Assembly (NCBI GenBank): GCA_025612245.1
Contig: JAAXKQ010000002.1
Coordinates: forward strand, 310,001-374,000
Length of the DNA stretch: 64,000 nt
Reading direction: 5' to 3'
DNA from: Ignavibacteria bacterium
Lineage (GTDB): Bacteria; Bacteroidota; Ignavibacteria; Ignavibacteriales; SURF-24
The translations under genes were made by a program, and so were the position numbers. This document shows positions 14,670 through 25,637 of this stretch, piece after piece (the stretch's first letter is position 1; each line of letters begins with the position of its first letter). The notes beneath the pieces are model-generated. The model had not been told where the DNA came from. It saw only the letters and a program-made list of their open reading frames with translations, and ran no database searches.

Positions 14670-15359
14670 TTACTTCGATTTCGGTGTTTCCTTTTTATCA
14701 ATAATTATAATATTCTGGTCTTTCTGGTATGAAGGGTGATATGCACCGAAAGGCAGAGATTGCAGCACTTCCTCGTTTGCTTTTTTAGCCAGAGGGACGT
14801 AATCTGTTGTGGCGCTTTTTATTGCAGTAGTAACAGCCTTTGCCAGTAATCCGGCCCAGCCTGTCATGCCTCCATCGTCGCCGGTTGTGTTGACTACTAC
14901 GGTGCCATTATAGTACCAGAGGCGTTTGCCGGAAATAGCAGACTTTATTTCCGATTCCACTGCCACGGTAACATTCCCGCCCAAAACATAATATGAAGTG
15001 TCCCATTTAAGAATTTTGACGTACATAACGGCGTCGGTCCCAAAAAATTCCCTGAACTTCTCAGGAGCTACATTCGATATTGTTTCAGTGTCATACATTC
15101 CTTCCCGCTGAAGTATGTCAAATACGACCTCCAGTGGATAAACATAATAGCCGCTGGCAGTTAAAGGTTCTGCAATTGTTGTAGAATAGTACTCCTTTGC
15201 GTCGGCGGCAGTGGTTGAATTTATTGGAGGAAGCACCAAAATGGACTTCGGGTGATCTGCATACATATCGGGGAATGCATTTTCCTTTGTAATTCTGGGC
15301 TGGCAGCCCGATAAGGCTATCAGGGCTATTAAAACTAAGAATGACTTTAATGTTTTCAT
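14670..15359 (-). CDS. GNA1162/DUF799-type lipoprotein
   Basis: This 229-residue lipoprotein (lipobox ALSGC at about 15-19) matches the GNA1162 (DUF799) family: PKSILVLPPINSTTAADAKEYYSTTIAEPL, then GYYVYPLEVV and FGTDAVMYVKI. The family resembles TolB N-terminal or LptE-like outer-membrane lipoproteins and is regularly found with CsgG-like and DUF4810 genes. It is the last gene of a four-gene operon and overlaps its upstream neighbour by four bases. Its exact role is not known; the set is presumed to form an outer-membrane assembly or secretion complex. Confidence 0.88.
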   Translation of the reverse strand: MKTLKSFLVLIALIALSGCQPRITKENAFPDMYADHPKSILVLPPINSTTAADAKEYYSTTIAEPLTASGYYVYPLEVVFDILQREGMYDTETISNVAPEKFREFFGTDAVMYVKILKWDTSYYVLGGNVTVAVESEIKSAISGKRLWYYNGTVVVNTTGDDGGMTGWAGLLAKAVTTAIKSATTDYVPLAKKANEEVLQSLPFGAYHPSYQKDQNIIIIDKKETPKSK

Positions 15360-15724
15360 TTTTTCTCCGCGGTTTTTGCAGTATCCATAAGCAGTCTGTC
15401 AATGAAGACCTTTGATTCGGGATAAGTTTGCATTTCGAGTTCAAAATATTGCCTGGCTTCCGCCTGGTGGTTGGTTTTCAATAGCATGTAACCATACTCG
15501 CAATATACTCCCGGGGGAACACGTTTATTTAATTTCTTCGAATTTTCGATTATTGATTTTAGCATTTCCGTATGAGCAGCCATCGATTTCTCGTCGGGTG
15601 ATTTTTTAAGCTCATATAGCGTATTTGAGTAATCTCCCCAGTAGTAAAGGTCCTGAGAATGGGAACAGCCGATAACGAAAGTCGAAAGAAGGAGTCCAAA
15701 AGAAATGATAAGAGCTTTTTTCAT
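15356..15724 (-). CDS. DUF4810 lipoprotein
   Basis: This 122-residue lipoprotein has the signal LLSTFVIGC. YYWGDYSNTLYELKKSP after the lipobox and PPGVYCEYGYMLLKTNHQAEARQYFELEMQTYPES in the second half are the DUF4810 hallmarks; the latter reads as a single TPR-like hairpin. It overlaps both flanking genes by four bases (ATGA junctions), so it is translationally coupled within the CsgG cluster. Confidence 0.88.
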   Translation of the reverse strand: MKKALIISFGLLLSTFVIGCSHSQDLYYWGDYSNTLYELKKSPDEKSMAAHTEMLKSIIENSKKLNKRVPPGVYCEYGYMLLKTNHQAEARQYFELEMQTYPESKVFIDRLLMDTAKTAEKK

Positions 15725-16011
15725 GGTACTTTTATCTCCATTGTAGTTTTATTATCAAGGAAAACGAGGCGTTTGACAACAACCTGACTGTTCCTGGTGA
15801 TTTTAATTTCATGTTTCCCGGGTGCAGTCTGATACAGGTCTATTTTATTGTCAATTGGAAATGGATCTCCTCCATCAATTGATATTTGTATCATTTCGGT
15901 ATTACCGACAAACTTAAGATAGCTTTTATCGGCCTTTATGGTAATGCTTTCATTGTATCCGCATCCGGCAAGAAAGGTCATCAGTAAAACGAGTATTGCA
16001 AAATTTTTCAT
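15721..16011 (-). CDS. Small beta-rich lipoprotein of the CsgG cluster
   Basis: This 96-residue lipoprotein has the signal VLLMTFLAGCG. The mature part is a short beta domain (LYQTAPGKHEIKITRNSQVVVKRLVFLDN) with the look of a PEGA-type module, which often contacts cell-wall or surface polymers. It lies between the CsgG-like gene and the DUF4810 gene with four-base overlaps on both sides. I do not know a named family. Comparable CsgG clusters I recall have three genes, so this small fourth member may be a lineage addition. Confidence 0.7.
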   Translation of the reverse strand: MKNFAILVLLMTFLAGCGYNESITIKADKSYLKFVGNTEMIQISIDGGDPFPIDNKIDLYQTAPGKHEIKITRNSQVVVKRLVFLDNKTTMEIKVP

Positions 16012-16973
16012 TTATGCGCTCCCATAGGTTTATTTTCTTCAATGTATAAGTCACTGAAATCCTGTGCGGGTATATCGCCGGAAATCTTTTCGCAGTAGCT
16101 GATTTCCTCAGGTTCCGTATTTCCGAATGTGGAAATTACCTTTATGGACGCTATCTGTTTGCCCGGCAGCTCGATCACGGTATTCGTCTGGGGGTTATTT
16201 ACCTTTTTGCCTCTTCTGAAGACATTGAAAGTATCGCCTTCTTTTATTCCCTGCGATTTTCCCCCTGAAATAATTATATTATTATCCTCCAGTGAGAGTA
16301 TGTAGGATCTCCAGGGCTTGTCCAGCAAATTTTCAATAATATTATTAACGAGCTTAGAAATGGCGGCTGAGATTACCTTGTCATTTAATGTTGCGTCATA
16401 ATCGGCTCTTTCTCCAACACCTAAAACCGTGCCCGATTCTGCCGTTGCTTCTCCTTCGCCTTCCTCGGAATATATTATCTGGCTGGTGTGCACATCCACC
16501 AGTCTGATGTTGACTTTTGCATAAGCCGTTTGTGTTTTTGTACGGCTGAAGACGCCAACGTCGCTAGTTGTCTTTCGTCCGAATTCAGAAACAGAACCCA
16601 GTATGAGGTAATCGGCAGCAATATTTTCTTCGGAAATCTTTCCCATCCCCTTTTCTTTTATGACCTGATTCAGATCTGACCTTTCCAGCAGCAAAAACTT
16701 TCCGGTTGCGGCAAGTTTGGCCGACAGGATATCCATGGCCTGTTTTCCCAATGGGTCATCATTTTTGTCGTAAAAGAAACCCTGTCCGTATTTTGTTTCA
16801 TTTGTAAATCTTGCAATAGCTACCTTCCTCTTCAATGTTTTTTCCGGCTGAGTAAGAGTGGCACTTATCTGAGGCTTGGTCTCCGGAATTATCCTGACCT
16901 CCGGGGTTTTTACCGTTGCACATGCCTGGAAGATAAATGGCACGATCAGCAAATAGGGATATTTTCTCTTCAT
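16008..16973 (-). CDS. CsgG/HfaB-family outer-membrane lipoprotein
   Basis: This 321-residue lipoprotein has the lipobox FIFQAC near residue 18. The CsgG domain covers about 45-225: KRKVAIARFTNET, then LLERSDLNQVIKEKG, AADYLILGSVSEFG, and IRLVDVHTSQIIYSEEGEGEA. CsgG forms ring pores that export curli-type fibres; HfaB anchors holdfast. A beta-rich extension (IISGGKSQGIKEGDTFNVFRRGKKV) follows, a flagellar-assembly-like fold often seen after CsgG domains. No curli subunit gene is nearby. It is the first gene of the operon; the promoter should lie in 16974-17100. Confidence 0.9.
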   Translation of the reverse strand: MKRKYPYLLIVPFIFQACATVKTPEVRIIPETKPQISATLTQPEKTLKRKVAIARFTNETKYGQGFFYDKNDDPLGKQAMDILSAKLAATGKFLLLERSDLNQVIKEKGMGKISEENIAADYLILGSVSEFGRKTTSDVGVFSRTKTQTAYAKVNIRLVDVHTSQIIYSEEGEGEATAESGTVLGVGERADYDATLNDKVISAAISKLVNNIIENLLDKPWRSYILSLEDNNIIISGGKSQGIKEGDTFNVFRRGKKVNNPQTNTVIELPGKQIASIKVISTFGNTEPEEISYCEKISGDIPAQDFSDLYIEENKPMGAHK

Positions 16974-17459
16974 TATTCACCTTCGTTATGATTAAAGTAA
17001 GTGATATTTATTTTGTTTTAGATCATTTACAGATATGATGTTCGTGCAAAATATTACTCCGCCGGGCACTTCTCGTTCGAATGGAATTGGAATCTGTTTG
17101 CTTATTCGGTCCGCATTAACTAAAATATGGCTCATGAATGCATAACGTAATTTGTGGTGGCAGCAACAAGTACAATAAACACTATGTGACCGGTTCCTGG
17201 TAAAAGACTAAGCAAGTGTTTATTTGCCTTCAAAACTTGAAAAAATTATAAGGAATAATCAACAAAATATTGAACAAAATGACATTGAATAAAACCAGAT
17301 GGAGTCTTAACCATATGAAGTCGCCATGAAAGAATCTTTTATTGAATAAACATTTGCCGGGATTAATTTTTGGCGTTCTGCTGTGTTGTAAATTTGCCAT
17401 ATTTGCAGGGCTCTAATAAGGAACCCTATGTTATTTTAAGTAAAAAAATCAAAAACGAG
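16974..17459. other. Divergent intergenic region between CsgG operon and LIM peptidase
   Basis: These 486 bp are AT-rich and hold no convincing gene. They must contain the leftward promoter of the CsgG operon and the rightward promoter of the LIM peptidase. I find only weak inverted repeats (for example CAAGT at 17213 with ACTTG at 17235) and no strong RBS before the chosen LIM start. Confidence 0.4.
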
Positions 17460-18536
17460 ATGACCAGCTTAAATTCAAAATATATTTTCAGCTTTATGCT
17501 TCTGATTTTTCTTCTTTTACCGCTTTATTTACAGGCGCAGGAGTGCAGCTATTGCGGAAAAAAGATCACTGGCAGGTATGTTGAAGCCAGCGGCAGATAT
17601 TTTCATCCCCGGCACTTCATTTGCGCCGGGTGCGGAAAAGTTATTACGGGTTCCTTTGGAGAAAAAGACGGCAGGTTCTTTCATCCGGACTGTTATGCCG
17701 TAAAAGAAGGCCTGATATGCGACTACTGCAAAAAGGTTATTAAAGGGGAATATGTTACAAGCGAGGGGAAAAAGTACCATCCGGGCTGCTATGAGAACAA
17801 CGTGCTTGCTAAATGTTATGTTTGCGGGAAGCCTCTTAATGGTGAATATACTATAGATACTTACGGCAATAAATACCATTCATACCATAGCCGTGAGCTT
17901 TCCAGATGCGACAACTGCGGCAGGATTATATCCAATAAGACGACCGGCGGAGGAAGAGCTTATTCGGATGGAAGAGACATATGTAACCTGTGCTACAAAG
18001 AGGCGGTATTTGACAATTCCCGCATAAATTCTCTTATGTCCAAAGTTATGCAGAGGCTTAAGACTCTGGGGCTTGGTTTTAACGAAAGGACTATTTCCAT
18101 AAAAGGAGTTGACAGAAGGGAACTTAAAAGAGCTGCCGGGAGCAGGTACGAGGAGAATATGAAGGGGATCTGCAACACCAATTCACGCACTGAGTACATA
18201 AATAACCATGTATCAAAAAGTACAAAGAAGCATGAAATTTTTGTACTTAATGGAGTACCTTCACTGAACATTGAATCTGTAATTGCCCACGAGCTGATGC
18301 ACGCATGGCTTAATGATAATACCAGGGACGACCATTCCTCCGGGCTAAGGGAGGGCAGCTGTAACTATATTTCCTACCTATACCTTAAAACGGTAAACAG
18401 TTCAAAGTCGTACCAGCTGATCAAACAGCTTGAGGAAGATGAGGATGACACGTACGGGAAAGGGTTCCTGAAAGTGAAATCGGAATTCGAAAATAAAAGT
18501 CTTAGCCAGCTTCTGAACTATCTGAAAAAGCTTTAG
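17460..18536 (+). CDS. Secreted LIM zinc-finger protein with DA1-like metallopeptidase domain
   Basis: I choose the ATG at 17460, which gives a clean signal peptide (MTSLNSKYIFSF...LYLQAQ) and a 358-residue product; upstream codons to 17370 would bury it. Right after the signal come LIM-type fingers: CSYC...HPRH...CAGC...HPDC (about 29-80, with His in one usual Cys position), then CDYC...HPGC...CYVC...HSYH, then a half module CDNC...CNLC. The C-terminal part carries AHELMHAWL, with predicted zinc ligands His277 and His281 and catalytic Glu278, then LREGSCNYISYL, where Glu298 should be the third ligand. This order, LIM then HELMHAWL then an E-G segment, is that of the plant DA1 peptidase. The protein is predicted to act outside the cytoplasm. 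The substrate is unknown. Confidence 0.88.
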   Translation: MTSLNSKYIFSFMLLIFLLLPLYLQAQECSYCGKKITGRYVEASGRYFHPRHFICAGCGKVITGSFGEKDGRFFHPDCYAVKEGLICDYCKKVIKGEYVTSEGKKYHPGCYENNVLAKCYVCGKPLNGEYTIDTYGNKYHSYHSRELSRCDNCGRIISNKTTGGGRAYSDGRDICNLCYKEAVFDNSRINSLMSKVMQRLKTLGLGFNERTISIKGVDRRELKRAAGSRYEENMKGICNTNSRTEYINNHVSKSTKKHEIFVLNGVPSLNIESVIAHELMHAWLNDNTRDDHSSGLREGSCNYISYLYLKTVNSSKSYQLIKQLEEDEDDTYGKGFLKVKSEFENKSLSQLLNYLKKL

Positions 18537-18800: not shown

Positions 18801-18907
18801 AATTTTTTTCCCCGGTGGCGTCCGGGAAAGGCTTACACGCCAAAAGAGATACAATTTTTTTCTTAGCACTAAAAATCACTAAATACAAAATATTCCGGAG
18901 CAAACGC

Positions 18908-21900
18908 ATGATTTTTTACAAAAGACAGCTCTTTTCTACGTTCTTAATTTTCTTTCTGATATTTTCGGCATTAGTTTGGGCAGAAAACAAGCCCCACAAA
19001 AATTCTACGAAATTAGTTATGCCGTGGCCTTGCATAAAACTAGACCTAAATAATCTTTCAACGTATAACTATAATGATGGGAGTTCAGACGATGACCTAT
19101 CAGGCAGCTCGGGGTTGGCATTCCCACGCGGCAGTGGTAAAATGGTCGTGTTCAAGTCGGGGATTATATGGGGAGCAAAAATAAAGGATTCCATTCATGT
19201 AGGCGGTTCTACATACCAATCCAGCCTTCAACCAGGGAAAATTATTTCCCCGGGGGTCAGTGAATCCCCTTTTGGTTTCAAAAACAGAATCTATAGGGTC
19301 AGACCCGATTATAAAACAGCAGATCTTTCAATTGAAGTTTCTGAGGAGGGGGGATCCGCAAGCGACATACGCACCCGGTATGAGCAGGACTGGATGGATT
19401 GGCCTGCAAGTGAAGGAGCTCCCTTTGTGGATATGGATGGCGACGGGAAATACGACCCGAATAAGGACATTCCTGGAGTTAAAGATGCCCTTCAGACCAT
19501 ATGGTTTGTGGCAAACGACCTCGATCAGAACAAATCTCTTGCTTTTTACGGTTCAACTTCGATGGGCATCGAGATGCAGGCTACAATGTGGGCATACGAC
19601 AAAGACTGGATTTTGAACAACACGTATTTTAAGAAGTATAAGTTAATAAACAAAAGTAATAACAATTTTAAGGATATGTATATTTCCTTCTGGACAGATC
19701 CGGATTTGGGAGATGGCAATGACGACTTGGCCGGTTGTGACACACTGCTAAATTTGGGCTACGTTTATAATGATGGTAGAGAAGACGCAATATATGGAAA
19801 CTATCCTCCAGCCGTGGGATTTGATATATTGCAGGGACCGCTGGTAAAAGGCATATCATCAGATTCTGCTATTTTTAATGGCAGGAGGGTCTATGGAAAG
19901 AAAAATCTTCCAATGAACGCTTTTTACTATTTCATCCCCGGGGATAACAATTACAGGGATCCCGAGATAGGAAACAACTATCAGAAGGGGGCGGTTGCAT
20001 TTTACAATTTTATGCAGGGTAAAATGGGTGAAAATTATTTCCCGGTTCCTGCTGAATTAGGCGGCGGGGTAACGAAGTTTCCTCTTTCAGGCGATCCTGT
20101 TTCTTCTTCAGGTTATCTGGATGGAAGCATATTCCGTAAAGGTGACCGCAGATTAGGCATGGCCTCGGGCCCTTTTGATTTGGCTCCTGGCGATACTCAG
20201 GAGGTTGTAATTTCAGAGATGGTTGCACAAAGCAGCAATAACTTACAGTCGGTTAAATTGTTAAAACTGTTCTCAACTGAAATTCAAAAGAAATACGATG
20301 CCTTCTTCAAATTTCCGGAAATCCCGGCACCCGAGTCTCCAAGGATTACGGGAACATATTCTAAAAATTCCATTACGATAAATATTCCAGAAAATGCACA
20401 GGTAGAAAACTTCGACCAGGATGGCTTTAAGTTTCAGGGCTACAACGTATATCAGCTGCCTAACGGCGTTCCTGAAAAAAGGGGAGCGTTATACCTGGGT
20501 ACGTTCGATAAAATTGACGGAATTCGAGCTATTACAGGCCGCGGTGTAGATACCCTGACGGGAGCACAGGTGAATCTTATGCAGCAGAGGGGCTCGGATT
20601 CCGGAATATTAAGGGAAGTTACATTTACAAGGGACTCACTTGGGCACGCCCCGTTCCTCATCGGGAGAAAATACTACTTCGGCATTTCGGCCTATACGTA
20701 CAGGAATGATCCTGTCAACAACTTTACGAACACAGAAAGTCCCCTCGGAGTAGTAGCTGTTACTTTCCAGGACAGCCTGCCGGGTCTGAAATATAATGAT
20801 GCACTAAAAATTACCAGAATTTCGGGACAGACAGAAGGAACAATTACTCCCATTGTAATTGATCCCACAAAGCTGACCGGGGATGATTATCAGATAGGTT
20901 TCGACAATGAAAACGGAATATCTGTATTGTATCTCAAAGACCTCACGAAAGGTTACAGAGTTACTAAGGACGAGTCAGCTTTATACGGCAGTTCTTTTGC
21001 TCCCGTTTATGATGGTATTTACATAAAAGTAGCAGACGTTCAGCCGGGATTAAAAGAATGGCAAATCCCCCATGGGAGTCTCAAATGGTCCTGGTCCGGA
21101 GCAACAGGCTTGGCCTTGGAGGGATTTAATGGTGCAATGGGCTATGGAGGAACCTGGCCCGGTACATCAGCAGGTATTGACAAGCTGCATAATGTGTTGA
21201 TTAAGTTTGCCTCAACAGATTCCAGCGGTAATATACTGGATGCGGGAGACCCGAATGTCTCGTATGCATACCGGTATTTGCGCAATTCGCTCCAGGCTCC
21301 TGCGAAGCCTGAATTTGCGCAGTTTATTATAAATAAAGGTTCGGGATATGTGTACCAGGACTTTATAAGGAACTTTCCTTTTGCCGCATACGACATGGAA
21401 AGCAACCCGCCAAGGCGTCTTGCCGTAGGTTATCTTGAGAATAATGCAACAGGAGGTTTGGTTGACGGGAAATACTGGCCTCCTACAATGGGACAGGATA
21501 ATTTTGGAGCAAGCAGTCCGAGAGAATGGTTCTTTATTTTTGACGTGCCGTACGGTGAAACCTTAGATGCTGAATTGCAGGGAAGTCCCTTATCGGGTTC
21601 TCTTCCGGTTCTTTGGATGGGAACTCCGACAAGAATCAGCAACATGACTTTCAGTTCAGATGACCAGTTCCTGATTCTCAGAAGCCATCCATTTACCTCA
21701 GAGGACGTATTTACATTTACCATGGAGCGCCAGGCTTCAGATGTCAAAACAGGGGCAATTCCGCTGAGCTATGAAATGTCTCAGAACTATCCGAATCCTT
21801 TCAACCCGGTGACGACGATCAGGTACTCTATACCTGAGGCATCAAGGGTAGAGCTGAAGGTCTATGACATACTGGGCCGTGAGGTAACTACACTGGTAAA

Positions 21901-22027
21901 CAAGGATCAGAACAGGGGAAGCTACAGCGTGCAGTTTGACGCAGGGAAGCTCAGTTCAGGAATATATATATATAGAATATCGGCAAAGAACTTCACGAAG
22001 ACCAGTAAGATGGTCCTGCTGAAGTAA
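18908..22027 (+). CDS. Large T9SS-exported surface protein, tandem copy 1
   Basis: I choose ATG 18908, which follows TCCGGAG and starts the signal peptide (MIFYKRQLFSTFLIFFLIFS...VWAEN); the product is 1039 residues. Residues after about 190 hold a dockerin- or thrombospondin-3-like calcium loop, DMDGDGKYDPNKDIPGV, and then WFVANDLDQNKSLAFYGS and SFWTDPDLGDGNDDLAGCD, features of a family of very large secreted proteins in Ignavibacteria. A fibronectin III-like part (FQGYNVYQLPNG) lies mid-protein. The last 85 residues are a T9SS type A tail (MSQNYPNPFNPVTTIRYSIP). It has a close paralogue immediately downstream. The function is unknown; surface display is inferred from the tail. Confidence 0.85.
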   Translation: MIFYKRQLFSTFLIFFLIFSALVWAENKPHKNSTKLVMPWPCIKLDLNNLSTYNYNDGSSDDDLSGSSGLAFPRGSGKMVVFKSGIIWGAKIKDSIHVGGSTYQSSLQPGKIISPGVSESPFGFKNRIYRVRPDYKTADLSIEVSEEGGSASDIRTRYEQDWMDWPASEGAPFVDMDGDGKYDPNKDIPGVKDALQTIWFVANDLDQNKSLAFYGSTSMGIEMQATMWAYDKDWILNNTYFKKYKLINKSNNNFKDMYISFWTDPDLGDGNDDLAGCDTLLNLGYVYNDGREDAIYGNYPPAVGFDILQGPLVKGISSDSAIFNGRRVYGKKNLPMNAFYYFIPGDNNYRDPEIGNNYQKGAVAFYNFMQGKMGENYFPVPAELGGGVTKFPLSGDPVSSSGYLDGSIFRKGDRRLGMASGPFDLAPGDTQEVVISEMVAQSSNNLQSVKLLKLFSTEIQKKYDAFFKFPEIPAPESPRITGTYSKNSITINIPENAQVENFDQDGFKFQGYNVYQLPNGVPEKRGALYLGTFDKIDGIRAITGRGVDTLTGAQVNLMQQRGSDSGILREVTFTRDSLGHAPFLIGRKYYFGISAYTYRNDPVNNFTNTESPLGVVAVTFQDSLPGLKYNDALKITRISGQTEGTITPIVIDPTKLTGDDYQIGFDNENGISVLYLKDLTKGYRVTKDESALYGSSFAPVYDGIYIKVADVQPGLKEWQIPHGSLKWSWSGATGLALEGFNGAMGYGGTWPGTSAGIDKLHNVLIKFASTDSSGNILDAGDPNVSYAYRYLRNSLQAPAKPEFAQFIINKGSGYVYQDFIRNFPFAAYDMESNPPRRLAVGYLENNATGGLVDGKYWPPTMGQDNFGASSPREWFFIFDVPYGETLDAELQGSPLSGSLPVLWMGTPTRISNMTFSSDDQFLILRSHPFTSEDVFTFTMERQASDVKTGAIPLSYEMSQNYPNPFNPVTTIRYSIPEASRVELKVYDILGREVTTLVNKDQNRGSYSVQFDAGKLSSGIYIYRISAKNFTKTSKMVLLK

Positions 22028-22057
22028 ATATTTCTAAAAGATGGGGCAGGGTTAATA
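21899..22057 (+). repeat. 159-bp block identical to the 3' end of the next gene
   Basis: By direct reading, bases 21899-22057 are identical to 25509-25667. The block covers the end of the T9SS tail, the stop codon and the first 30 bases after it, up to the terminator loop. Upstream of it the two genes have clearly diverged. Confidence 0.92.
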
Positions 22058-22066
22058 TCCTGCCCC
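22043..22066 (+). terminator. Hairpin after tandem copy 1, T-run lost
   Basis: GGGGCAGG (22043-22050) and CCTGCCCC (22059-22066) form an 8-bp stem. It corresponds to the terminator of the second copy, but here AAAG follows instead of a T-run, so read-through towards copy 2 is likely. Confidence 0.6.
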
Positions 22067-22283
22067 AAAGATAAAACTAATTGTTAAAAACATATCCTTA
22101 TTTTGACCCCAGAAAGCGTACAATGCTTAATGATAAAAGCCTTACTACTTTAAGGTTATAGTTGCCCAAAAGGGCAACGTAGTAATCATTATTATAGCCA
22201 CCGCCGCAGTACATGCATCATTAGATCCGTCTGAATTATCCGAAAGCCAAGCCTAAAAACAAAAAAAATGAAAAAAAATAAAA
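22067..22283. other. Intergenic stretch with long symmetrical hairpin
   Basis: No gene is seen. GTTGCCC-AAAA-GGGCAAC (22162-22179) is a perfect hairpin, and TTACTAC (22143-22149) with GTAGTAA (22180-22186) extends the symmetry around it. An A-rich run (22259-22286) leads into the shared upstream box. Confidence 0.5.
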
Positions 22284-22326
22284 AAATTTTCCGAAAACGC
22301 CTCTTGTCACCATATATATAGAAAAG
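22284..22326 (+). promoter_or_regulatory. Shared upstream box, (AT)4 version
   Basis: AAATTTTCCGAAAACGC, CTCTTGTCACC, ATATATATA and GAAAAG repeat the order seen at 18748-18800 but with about four AT units in place of seven. A hairpin, CAGTTC-TGAA-GAACTG (22351-22366), follows in the presumed 5' untranslated region. Confidence 0.45.
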
Positions 22327-22421
22327 GGCTCTTTTTTTAAGGTGAACAAGCAGTTCTGAAGAACTGATTTTATAATAAATTTAGAATCCTACTTTTCTCA
22401 ACATTCTCAGGAGCGCTATAA

Positions 22422-25400
22422 ATGAACAAAAAGCTTACAAAATTACTAATTGCAGTGTTGATGCTCGTGGTTTTTTCTGCCTATGCTTTTGCCGACGGAG
22501 TGCAGAAGGATAAGAAAAATGTCCCGTCAAACATAAAAGGCAGCCCAAAATCGGCACTACTTAACAATAATCAGATTTCGACCTGGTTTTACAATAATGG
22601 GATTTCAGACAATAATAGTCTGGGTAACTCAGGGTTTGTATATCCCAGGGGAAGCAATAAGGCAGCATTCTACCTGACCGGGTTCGTTTGGGGCGGCAAG
22701 ATAGATGGAGTAGTGCACGTAGGAGGTTCCACCTACCAGAGCGGTCTTCTTCCGGGAGCCATCAAGAATGGAAAACCTGAAGATCCCAATGCAGAAAATG
22801 TCCGCATCTACAGGGTAAGAAGAGACTACCGGACTGGCAGCTTAGCTATGGAAATTAGGGATGGGGAAGGAACTGAGAATCAAGTAAGGGCGCAATACGA
22901 AAAGGATTGGATGGAATGGCCTGCAATCGATGGTGCCCCGTATGAGGACCTTAATGGCGACGGGAAGTATGATCCAAGTACTGACATTCCGGGGGTGCCC
23001 GGAGCAGACCAGACCATATGGTTTGTCAATAATGATTTCGATACGACTACTGTCAAGGCTTTATACGGGTCGCTTCCGATGGGTTTGGAGTGCCAGACCA
23101 CAATCTGGAATTATTGTGTCGCTGGTCCCCTTGGGAACATGATCTTCAGGAAATATAAAATGATAAATAAAGGGAAGGACAACATTACTGATATGTATGC
23201 ATCAGTATGGAGTGATCCTGACCTAGGTGATGCAAATGATGACCTTGCAGGCTGCGACAGCACTCTGAATTTGGGGTATTGTTATAATGCAGGGAGCATT
23301 GATGCAATCTATGGAAGTAATCCCCCGGCAGCCGGATTTTCCATAGTGCAGGGACCCGTAGTAGAAGGCAATATTTCCGATACTGCTCTTGTAGATGGGC
23401 ACAAGGTATCTGGCAAGAAAAATCTTCCCATGACTTCTTTTTATTATTTGGTAAATCAAAGCAATACTTATGCCGATCCGGCAATTGGAGTGGATTACCT
23501 TAGGGGTACCCTGCGTCTATACAATCTTATGCAGGGCAAGATGAGCACAACCGGAGAGTTGTTTCCACTCCCGCCATCCTTAGGTCCGGGGACAACGAAA
23601 TTTCCGCTTTCAGGAGATCCCGTTTTGCATACCGGTTACCTGGACGGCGAAATCTTTCCAAAAGGGGACCGTAGATTCGGCATTTCTTCAGGCCCTTTTA
23701 TGCTGGCTTCTGGTGATGCTCAGGAAGTAATCATCGCCCAGGTTGCTGCCGGCGGACCCGGTTCAGGCTTAAATAATATCAACGCAATTACATTGCTGAA
23801 GAACTATGTCAAAGCCGCCCTGGGTAATTCTGATAACGAGGTAACACCAAAACCAGTTACTACCTCCCCAAAAGTTAAAGTTGCCGAACTGGATAAAGAG
23901 ATTATACTTGACTGGGGCAGCGATGCCATACAGGTGGAGGCAACAGAAGGCTACAATAATAAAGGCTTCACGTTTGAAGGTTATAATGTATACCAGCTTC
24001 CATCGCCTATGGCCACAAGGTCCCAGGCTAAAAGAATTGCTGTTTATGACAGGATCGATGACGTGAAATATATCCTGGGCGATGTTGTCGATCCTGAAAC
24101 CGGGGTTATTCTTAAAGCGGTTCAGCAGGCCGGCAACGATACCGGAATTAAGCGAACAATAAAAATTGACAGGGATTACCTGACCAACCAGCCTCTTGAA
24201 AACGGCAAGGAATATTACTTTGCAGTTACTTCATATTCATATAACCCTGATCCCGAGGCACTTATTAGCAATCTGGAAGACCCGATTTCAATTATCAAGG
24301 TGACTCCTCAAGCTCCGGCAGCGGGAGAAAAGTACTATGTGAATTATGGCGATACGGTGGCTGTTACGAGGGTTAGCGGAAGAAGTGACGGAAAGGTGGT
24401 TGCACTTGTTGTAAATCCCAAGGCCATTACCGGTCACAGTTATCAGGTTTCATTCAACAATAAGTCCGTTTTTGAAGGCACACGCTGGAAGGTAACGGAT
24501 CTTACGACAAACCAGATTAAAATTTCAGATCAGGTAAACCAGACGGGAGACGAAGCATACCTGACAGTTGACGGATTACTCATAAAGGTATTTGGTGTGC
24601 CATTGTTAATGAAGTCTCATGATATTAATGATAATCCGGCAACACCGGAAAACACGTGGGGCTGGAAAGTATTGAAAGGTCAACTAAGATTTACGTGGGA
24701 AGGAGCTGACGGCTATTGGCTCGAAGGCTTCGAGGGTGCAATGGGTGCCGGTACACTCTGGGGTACTCCTCTTACTCAGTTAAAGGATATAAAACTGGTA
24801 CTTGCCGCAACTGATACACTGGGCAATCCTCTTAATCCGGATGATCCCAATGTATCTTATGCATACAGATACCTGCGTAATGCGTATCTTGAAGCTGCAA
24901 AGCCGGAATTTGCCCAGTTTATAGTAAACAAAGAGTCGGGTTACCCGTATCAGGATTTCAAGAAAACCCTGCCTCTTGCAGCTTATGACATGGAAGATCC
25001 TCTGAACCCGAAGAGACTTGCAGTAGGTTTCCTCGAGAACAACGTTGCAGCGGGCCTGGTAGACGGCAAATACTGGCCGCCAATTTCTACGTCTGCAAAT
25101 AAGATAGACAACTACAGTACAACTGCTCCAAGAGAATGGCTGTTTGTCTTTGACGTCCCTTATTCAACAACCCCGGACCCACTCCTGCAGGAAAATAGAT
25201 TATCCTTTGGAGAGCTGCCTGTTATTATTTCCAGCCTGGCCAACAGGAACTCAAAATCCTGGCCGGGTGGTGATGAACTCGGTATCTATGTAAATCATTT
25301 AAATGCAGAAAACGATCTGTTTAACATCAGGACAGATTACCTTCTTACCTCAGTAGAAACTGAAGCAATTCCGACGAGTTACGAGATGTCTCAGAACTAC

Positions 25401-25637
25401 CCGAATCCTTTTAATCCGGTAACAACGATCAGGTACTCGATACCTGAGGCATCAAAGGTAGAGCTGAAGGTCTATGACATACTGGGCCGTGAGGTAATGA
25501 CACTAGTCAACAAGGATCAGAACAGGGGAAGCTACAGCGTGCAGTTTGACGCAGGGAAGCTCAGTTCAGGAATATATATATATAGAATATCGGCAAAGAA
25601 CTTCACGAAGACCAGTAAGATGGTCCTGCTGAAGTAA
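22422..25637 (+). CDS. Large T9SS-exported surface protein, tandem copy 2
   Basis: This 1071-residue paralogue of the preceding gene has a signal peptide (MNKKLTKLLIAVLMLVVF...AFADG) and a good RBS (CAGGAGCG). Shared landmarks appear in the same order: YPRGSNKAAF, VHVGGSTYQSGL, the calcium loop LNGDGKYDPSTDIPGVPG, SDPDLGDANDDLAGCDS, DGEIFPKGDRRFGISSGPF, FEGYNVYQLPS and the T9SS tail MSQNYPNPFNPVTTIRYSIP. The N-terminal two-thirds differ from copy 1 at many positions, while the last 50 or so residues are identical. It ends before a strong terminator. Function unknown; a ligand-binding or structural surface role is the only fair inference. Confidence 0.85.
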   Translation: MNKKLTKLLIAVLMLVVFSAYAFADGVQKDKKNVPSNIKGSPKSALLNNNQISTWFYNNGISDNNSLGNSGFVYPRGSNKAAFYLTGFVWGGKIDGVVHVGGSTYQSGLLPGAIKNGKPEDPNAENVRIYRVRRDYRTGSLAMEIRDGEGTENQVRAQYEKDWMEWPAIDGAPYEDLNGDGKYDPSTDIPGVPGADQTIWFVNNDFDTTTVKALYGSLPMGLECQTTIWNYCVAGPLGNMIFRKYKMINKGKDNITDMYASVWSDPDLGDANDDLAGCDSTLNLGYCYNAGSIDAIYGSNPPAAGFSIVQGPVVEGNISDTALVDGHKVSGKKNLPMTSFYYLVNQSNTYADPAIGVDYLRGTLRLYNLMQGKMSTTGELFPLPPSLGPGTTKFPLSGDPVLHTGYLDGEIFPKGDRRFGISSGPFMLASGDAQEVIIAQVAAGGPGSGLNNINAITLLKNYVKAALGNSDNEVTPKPVTTSPKVKVAELDKEIILDWGSDAIQVEATEGYNNKGFTFEGYNVYQLPSPMATRSQAKRIAVYDRIDDVKYILGDVVDPETGVILKAVQQAGNDTGIKRTIKIDRDYLTNQPLENGKEYYFAVTSYSYNPDPEALISNLEDPISIIKVTPQAPAAGEKYYVNYGDTVAVTRVSGRSDGKVVALVVNPKAITGHSYQVSFNNKSVFEGTRWKVTDLTTNQIKISDQVNQTGDEAYLTVDGLLIKVFGVPLLMKSHDINDNPATPENTWGWKVLKGQLRFTWEGADGYWLEGFEGAMGAGTLWGTPLTQLKDIKLVLAATDTLGNPLNPDDPNVSYAYRYLRNAYLEAAKPEFAQFIVNKESGYPYQDFKKTLPLAAYDMEDPLNPKRLAVGFLENNVAAGLVDGKYWPPISTSANKIDNYSTTAPREWLFVFDVPYSTTPDPLLQENRLSFGELPVIISSLANRNSKSWPGGDELGIYVNHLNAENDLFNIRTDYLLTSVETEAIPTSYEMSQNYPNPFNPVTTIRYSIPEASKVELKVYDILGREVMTLVNKDQNRGSYSVQFDAGKLSSGIYIYRISAKNFTKTSKMVLLK

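What the first reader, a model, noticed from the sequence alone, without database searches (positions are those of the whole stretch)
17460..18536. Secreted LIM-domain protein fused to a DA1-like metallopeptidase
LIM zinc fingers followed by HELMHAWL and a downstream E-G segment give the plan of plant DA1, a ubiquitin-activated peptidase. Here it carries a signal peptide, so it would act outside the cytoplasm in an organism with no visible ubiquitin system. One LIM position has His in place of Cys. What such an exported LIM peptidase cleaves is not known to me.
Basis: partly seen in the sequence, partly recalled or inferred. Interest (0 to 1): 0.75.

Follow-up and report, generated by a model that had tools for sequence, protein, structure and literature searches.

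The report
Exported bacterial LIM–DA1 metallopeptidase
A bacterium of the Ignavibacteriales exports a zinc-finger (LIM) protein joined to a zinc peptidase related to the plant growth regulator DA1; it belongs to a sizeable family of mostly exported bacterial enzymes, so this peptidase plan can exist without the ubiquitin machinery that switches on the plant enzyme.

Summary
Confirmed. ATG 17460 to stop 18536 encodes a 358-aa protein: signal peptide, LIM zinc fingers (Pfam LIM 6e-18), then a DA1-like peptidase (PF12315, 1.1e-14). AlphaFold2 models it well (pLDDT 91.8); residues 25-117 match PINCH LIM domains and 182-358 match the aminopeptidase N (M1) catalytic domain. The start and export signal look real. 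A congener keeps the same ATG (81% identity, dN/dS about 0.13) but not the frame upstream. All 21 aligned homologues have a hydrophobic N-terminus ending [A/G/S/P]-Gln, the signal peptidase I 'Q-rule' site reported for Ignavibacterium. Of 66 distinct homologues from about a dozen phyla, 58 of the 62 with a complete N-terminus look exported. The 'odd' His is an ordinary LIM ligand (paxillin has it). The invariant core is a LIM-like double zinc module plus peptidase; the fingers in front vary in number. DsbB and VKOR were not found in the genome, which would help the thiols stay reduced and bind zinc. Bacterial LIM–DA1 proteins are already in print (Roseiflexus; Burroughs 2011, Dong 2017), so this is a new member of a known kind. 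Export and lack of UIMs separate it from plant DA1. Substrate unknown.

The parts
17460..18536 (+). Whole gene: exported LIM–DA1-like zinc metallopeptidase, 358 aa
17369..17396 (+). Possible Bacteroidetes-type promoter (TTTG 17369-17372, N16, TAAATTTG 17389-17396), partly conserved with the congener although the reading frame is not; the TTG start listed at 17370 lies inside it
   Evidence: two upstream sequences printed; promoter type from general knowledge, tentative
17460..17537 (+). Sec signal peptide, residues 1-26, predicted signal peptidase I cleavage A26|Q27
   Evidence: Q-rule PMC5837995
17544..17693 (+). LIM domain 1: C29 C32 H49 H52 / C55 C58 H75 C78
17715..17789 (+). Extra half-LIM zinc module C86 C89 H107 C110
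17814..17993 (+). Invariant LIM-like double module C119 C122 H140 H143 / C150 C153 C175 C178
   Evidence: all eight invariant in 21 homologues
18009..18533 (+). DA1-like peptidase domain, residues 184-358, M1 aminopeptidase-like fold
18288..18302 (+). HELMH zinc-binding and catalytic motif (H277, E278, H281)
18351..18356 (+). E298-G299; E298 is the presumed third zinc ligand
18453..18464 (+). Y332-G-K-G335; Y332, G333 and G335 invariant; Y332 a candidate catalytic Tyr
   Evidence: role inferred

Best explanation
The gene encodes a Sec-exported zinc endopeptidase of the DA1-like family that most likely works in the periplasm. Shown from sequence: it is made with a signal peptide, the gene is under purifying selection, and it carries LIM modules, the LIM-like module and an M1-fold peptidase with HExxH-x16-EG. 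Inferred: signal peptidase I removes residues 1-26; the mature protein (no lipobox or T9SS tail seen) binds zinc through its five Cys/His modules and one catalytic site; the invariant LIM-like module packs on or gates the peptidase; the variable LIM fingers in front act as protein-binding adaptors that pick envelope substrates for limited cleavage. Control would be by partner or substrate binding to the zinc modules, not by ubiquitin.
For: Pfam LIM and DA1-like hits (all 21 members have DA1-like and 20 have LIM). AF2 pLDDT 91.8. Fold matches: PINCH LIM, Z 11.1, 93 aligned, rmsd 4.2; aminopeptidase N, Z 10.3, 146 aligned, rmsd 3.0. Same ATG and 81% identity in a congener, dN 0.113 / dS 0.865. 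Signal-peptide-like N-terminus in 58 of 62 complete homologues (count made). [AGSP]Q before the first Cys in 21/21, fitting the Q-rule; Ignavibacterium album Q-value 77% (PMC5837995). No DsbB or VKOR found in the genome, with ringing controls. LIM-like ligands and catalytic residues invariant while N-terminal LIM number varies. In plant DA1, mutating a LIM-like Cys (C274Y) abolished peptidase activity (PMC5322733).
Against: No activity, zinc content or localisation has been measured. The signal peptide was judged by a hydropathy script and the Q-rule pattern, not by SignalP. Substrate choice by the LIM fingers is inferred. Thioredoxin-like oxidases other than DsbB/VKOR were not searched for, so some cysteines could form disulfides. 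No conserved operon partner points to a substrate.
Confidence: 0.65

Rival explanations
1. It is an exported LIM–DA1 peptidase tied to peptidoglycan synthesis: it cleaves or matures a cell-wall enzyme such as a class A penicillin-binding protein.
For: In one clade (L069, L074, L083) the gene lies 85-193 bp downstream of a class A PBP gene on the same strand.
Against: No such neighbour in the window or in the Ignavibacteria loci; the association was seen in three related loci only.
Confidence: 0.12
2. The cysteine modules form disulfides in the periplasm and the protein is an exported, disulfide-stabilised peptidase, not a zinc-finger protein.
For: It is exported, and CxxC pairs outside the cytoplasm often oxidise (general knowledge).
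Against: His ligands (H107, H140, H143) are invariant, as zinc binding needs and disulfides do not; DsbB and VKOR not found in the genome.
Confidence: 0.1
3. It is a general scavenging or quality-control protease of the envelope with little substrate choice.
For: Stand-alone gene with no conserved partner; patchy distribution (30 of 96 relatives); M1-like fold.
Against: Strong conservation of the LIM-like module and retention of adaptor-like LIM fingers suggest selectivity; plant DA1 cleaves chosen proteins (PMC5322733).
Confidence: 0.13

Closest known systems
Plant DA1/DAR family (Arabidopsis DA1, PF12315)
   Same: LIM plus LIM-like plus clan MA peptidase; HExxH with E-G at matching distance (plant HEMMHX15EE, PMC5322733); PF12315 over cut-off
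   Different: Plant DA1 has ubiquitin-interacting motifs, is activated by ubiquitylation and acts inside the cell; here there is no UIM and a signal peptide
Bacterial LIM–DA1-like proteins (Roseiflexus; Burroughs, Iyer and Aravind 2011, cited in Dong 2017)
   Same: DA1-like proteins with LIM-like CxxC/H pairs reported in bacteria; from memory, the 2011 abstract proposes prokaryotic LIM domains as partners of membrane-associated peptidases
   Different: Neither the Roseiflexus protein nor the 2011 paper could be read here, so whether they were described as exported is not known to me
M1 aminopeptidases (e.g. aminopeptidase N)
   Same: Fold of the catalytic domain (Z 10.3), HExxH plus Glu
   Different: Here far shorter, without the other M1 domains; M1 Pfam score below cut-off (18 against 27.7 bits)
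Eukaryotic LIM adaptors (PINCH, paxillin)
   Same: LIM sequence and fold, including the H-x2-H ligand pair
   Different: Cytoplasmic/nuclear, no peptidase

Membership tests
DA1-like peptidase family (PF12315) | Score over Pfam gathering cut-off | tested here: met
   54.8 bits against 25; 21/21 homologues match
DA1-like peptidase family (PF12315) | HExxH plus downstream Glu at conserved spacing | tested here: met
   H277/E278/H281, E298; spacing 16-18 in all 66 homologues
DA1-like peptidase family (PF12315) | LIM and LIM-like modules in front of the peptidase | tested here: met
Plant DA1 (ubiquitin-activated) | N-terminal ubiquitin-interacting motifs | tested here: not met
   No UIM in Pfam scan at E<=1; mature chain starts two residues before LIM1
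Plant DA1 (ubiquitin-activated) | Activation by ubiquitylation | not testable with these tools
   no PF00179/PF00240 match in the genome, but without a ringing control
Plant DA1 (ubiquitin-activated) | Intracellular location | tested here: not met
   Conserved signal peptide by sequence; location itself not measured
LIM domain | Two linked zinc modules with eight Cys/His/Asp ligands and LIM fold | tested here: met
   LIM1 29-78 by Pfam and VIA-align Z 11.1 to PINCH; zinc itself not measured
Peptidase M1 | Pfam M1 score over cut-off | tested here: not met
   18 bits against 27.7; fold alike only

The most novel reading that the evidence does not exclude
An extracytoplasmic class of LIM-regulated peptidases, spread over FCB-related phyla, in which LIM zinc fingers work outside the cytoplasm as substrate adaptors; the plant DA1 growth regulator would be a later, cytoplasmic, ubiquitin-wired offshoot of such bacterial enzymes.
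Probability: 0.3. Interest if true: 0.7.

Novelty: new member of a known kind. Interest (0 to 1): 0.48.

Why it matters
How plant DA1 is held latent and then activated is not settled (Dong 2017 says the conformational step still has to be analysed). A compact, exported, ubiquitin-free relative with an invariant LIM-like module lets one ask what that module does to the active site by itself. LIM domains are known to me only as intracellular adaptors; a large bacterial family that exports them, in an organism where DsbB and VKOR were not found, would widen where this fold can work.

Tried and rejected
No relatives in viral contigs, phages or plasmids. Neighbour genes as substrate clue: the CsgG/DUF4810/GNA1162 lipoprotein operon upstream is not next to the congener's copy, and T9SS-tailed neighbours are probably too common in these genomes to mean much (base rate not tested). 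No DA1 peptidase came up among the 60 PDB sequences listed of 98 matched. Burroughs 2011 (PMC5938088) is not held. Downstream-start or upstream-start objections rejected: the frame before ATG 17460 is not conserved and the congener keeps the same ATG. Sampling caveat: one search fished with AHELMH[VAS]W taken from exported members, so the share of exported forms may be inflated.

Full report
The window is G000:C22:310001-374000. Comparing the relatives' contigs with named records shows that the relatives include Melioribacteraceae and Ignavibacteriaceae, so the genome is of the order Ignavibacteriales (its family is not named). ATG 17460 to stop 18536 gives 358 aa. Pfam reports LIM (6e-18) and DA1-like PF12315 (1.1e-14), both well over cut-off; Peptidase_M1 comes at 0.0024, under its cut-off. 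It is the only LIM protein found in the genome and the only PF12315 protein.

Start and export. ORF lists give a TTG start at 17370, but that codon sits in a stretch that looks like a Bacteroidetes-type promoter. The congener (L099, 81% identical) keeps ATG 17460 and not the frame upstream. dN/dS over the gene is about 0.13; the signal peptide is looser, as signal peptides often are. The N-terminus MTSLNSKYIFSFMLLIFLLLPLYLQA|QEC has a charged start, a hydrophobic core and A|Q. All 21 aligned relatives have [AGSP]Q just before the first zinc Cys. That is the Q-rule of signal peptidase I, for which Ignavibacterium album has a Q-value of 77% (PMC5837995). By my count, 66 distinct homologues were found; four have cut or masked N-termini (L086, L090, L091, L098); 58 of the other 62 have a signal-like segment (L063 borderline), and L068, L089, L095 and L096 do not clearly have one.

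Anatomy. LIM1 is C29 C32 H49 H52 C55 C58 H75 C78. A half-LIM C86 C89 H107 C110 follows. The LIM-like module C119 C122 H140 H143 C150 C153 C175 C178 is invariant in 21 homologues, as are H277 E278 H281 W283 E298 G299 Y332 G333 G335. The number of modules in front varies between homologues. So the core is LIM-like plus peptidase, and the front fingers are add-ons. AlphaFold2 gave pLDDT 91.8. VIA-align puts 25-117 on PINCH LIM (Z 11.1, rmsd 4.2, 93 residues) and 182-358 on aminopeptidase N (Z 10.3, rmsd 3.0, 146 residues).

Relatives. PF12315 is in 30 of 96 relatives and, drawn evenly from the phylum, 18 of 395 genomes, all in the same order. The genome collection gave 57 loci in Ignavibacteria, Zixibacteria, Marinimicrobia, Calditrichota, Eisenbacteria, Krumholzibacteria, Spirochaetes, a cyanobacterial MAG, Opitutia, Bacteroidales, Fusobacteria and others. 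In the tree the window gene sits in an Ignavibacteria clade (100/97). The two clearly unexported forms (L095, L096) fall with L060 and L063 in another clade (98/98).

Setting. The gene stands alone: divergent from a CsgG/DUF4810/GNA1162 operon and 375 bp before the ATG of a T9SS-tailed protein. No partner is conserved across loci, but in L069, L074 and L083 it follows a class A PBP gene by 85-193 bp. DsbB and VKOR were not found in the genome, with ringing controls, which favours zinc-bound thiols in the periplasm.

What is known. Dong 2017 (PMC5322733) describes DA1 as ubiquitin-activated with HEMMHX15EE, reports that C274Y in its LIM-like part kills activity, and notes similar proteins in Roseiflexus, citing Burroughs 2011. 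The bacterial architecture is therefore in print; the export, its conservation and the Q-rule site are what this analysis adds, as far as the papers held here show.

Noticed in passing
L069:188-2155, L074:695-2773, L083:4150-5712: Class A penicillin-binding protein gene directly upstream (85-193 bp, same strand) of the LIM–DA1 gene in one clade.
   Followed up: partly
14670-16973: Minus-strand lipoprotein operon: GNA1162-like, DUF4810, a small protein, CsgG.
   Followed up: partly
18815-25637: Two tandem large paralogous exported proteins; the first has a T9SS sorting tail (PF18962), and the congener's single copy matches both (66% and 48%).
   Followed up: partly
18171-18173 (residue C238): A 'G-[FYI]-C' cysteine before the active site is common in Ignavibacteria but often Thr in others; possible switch residue.
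   Followed up: no
L068 and L092: One cyanobacterial MAG (RYN_339) carries two LIM–DA1 genes, one with and one without a signal-like N-terminus.
   Followed up: no
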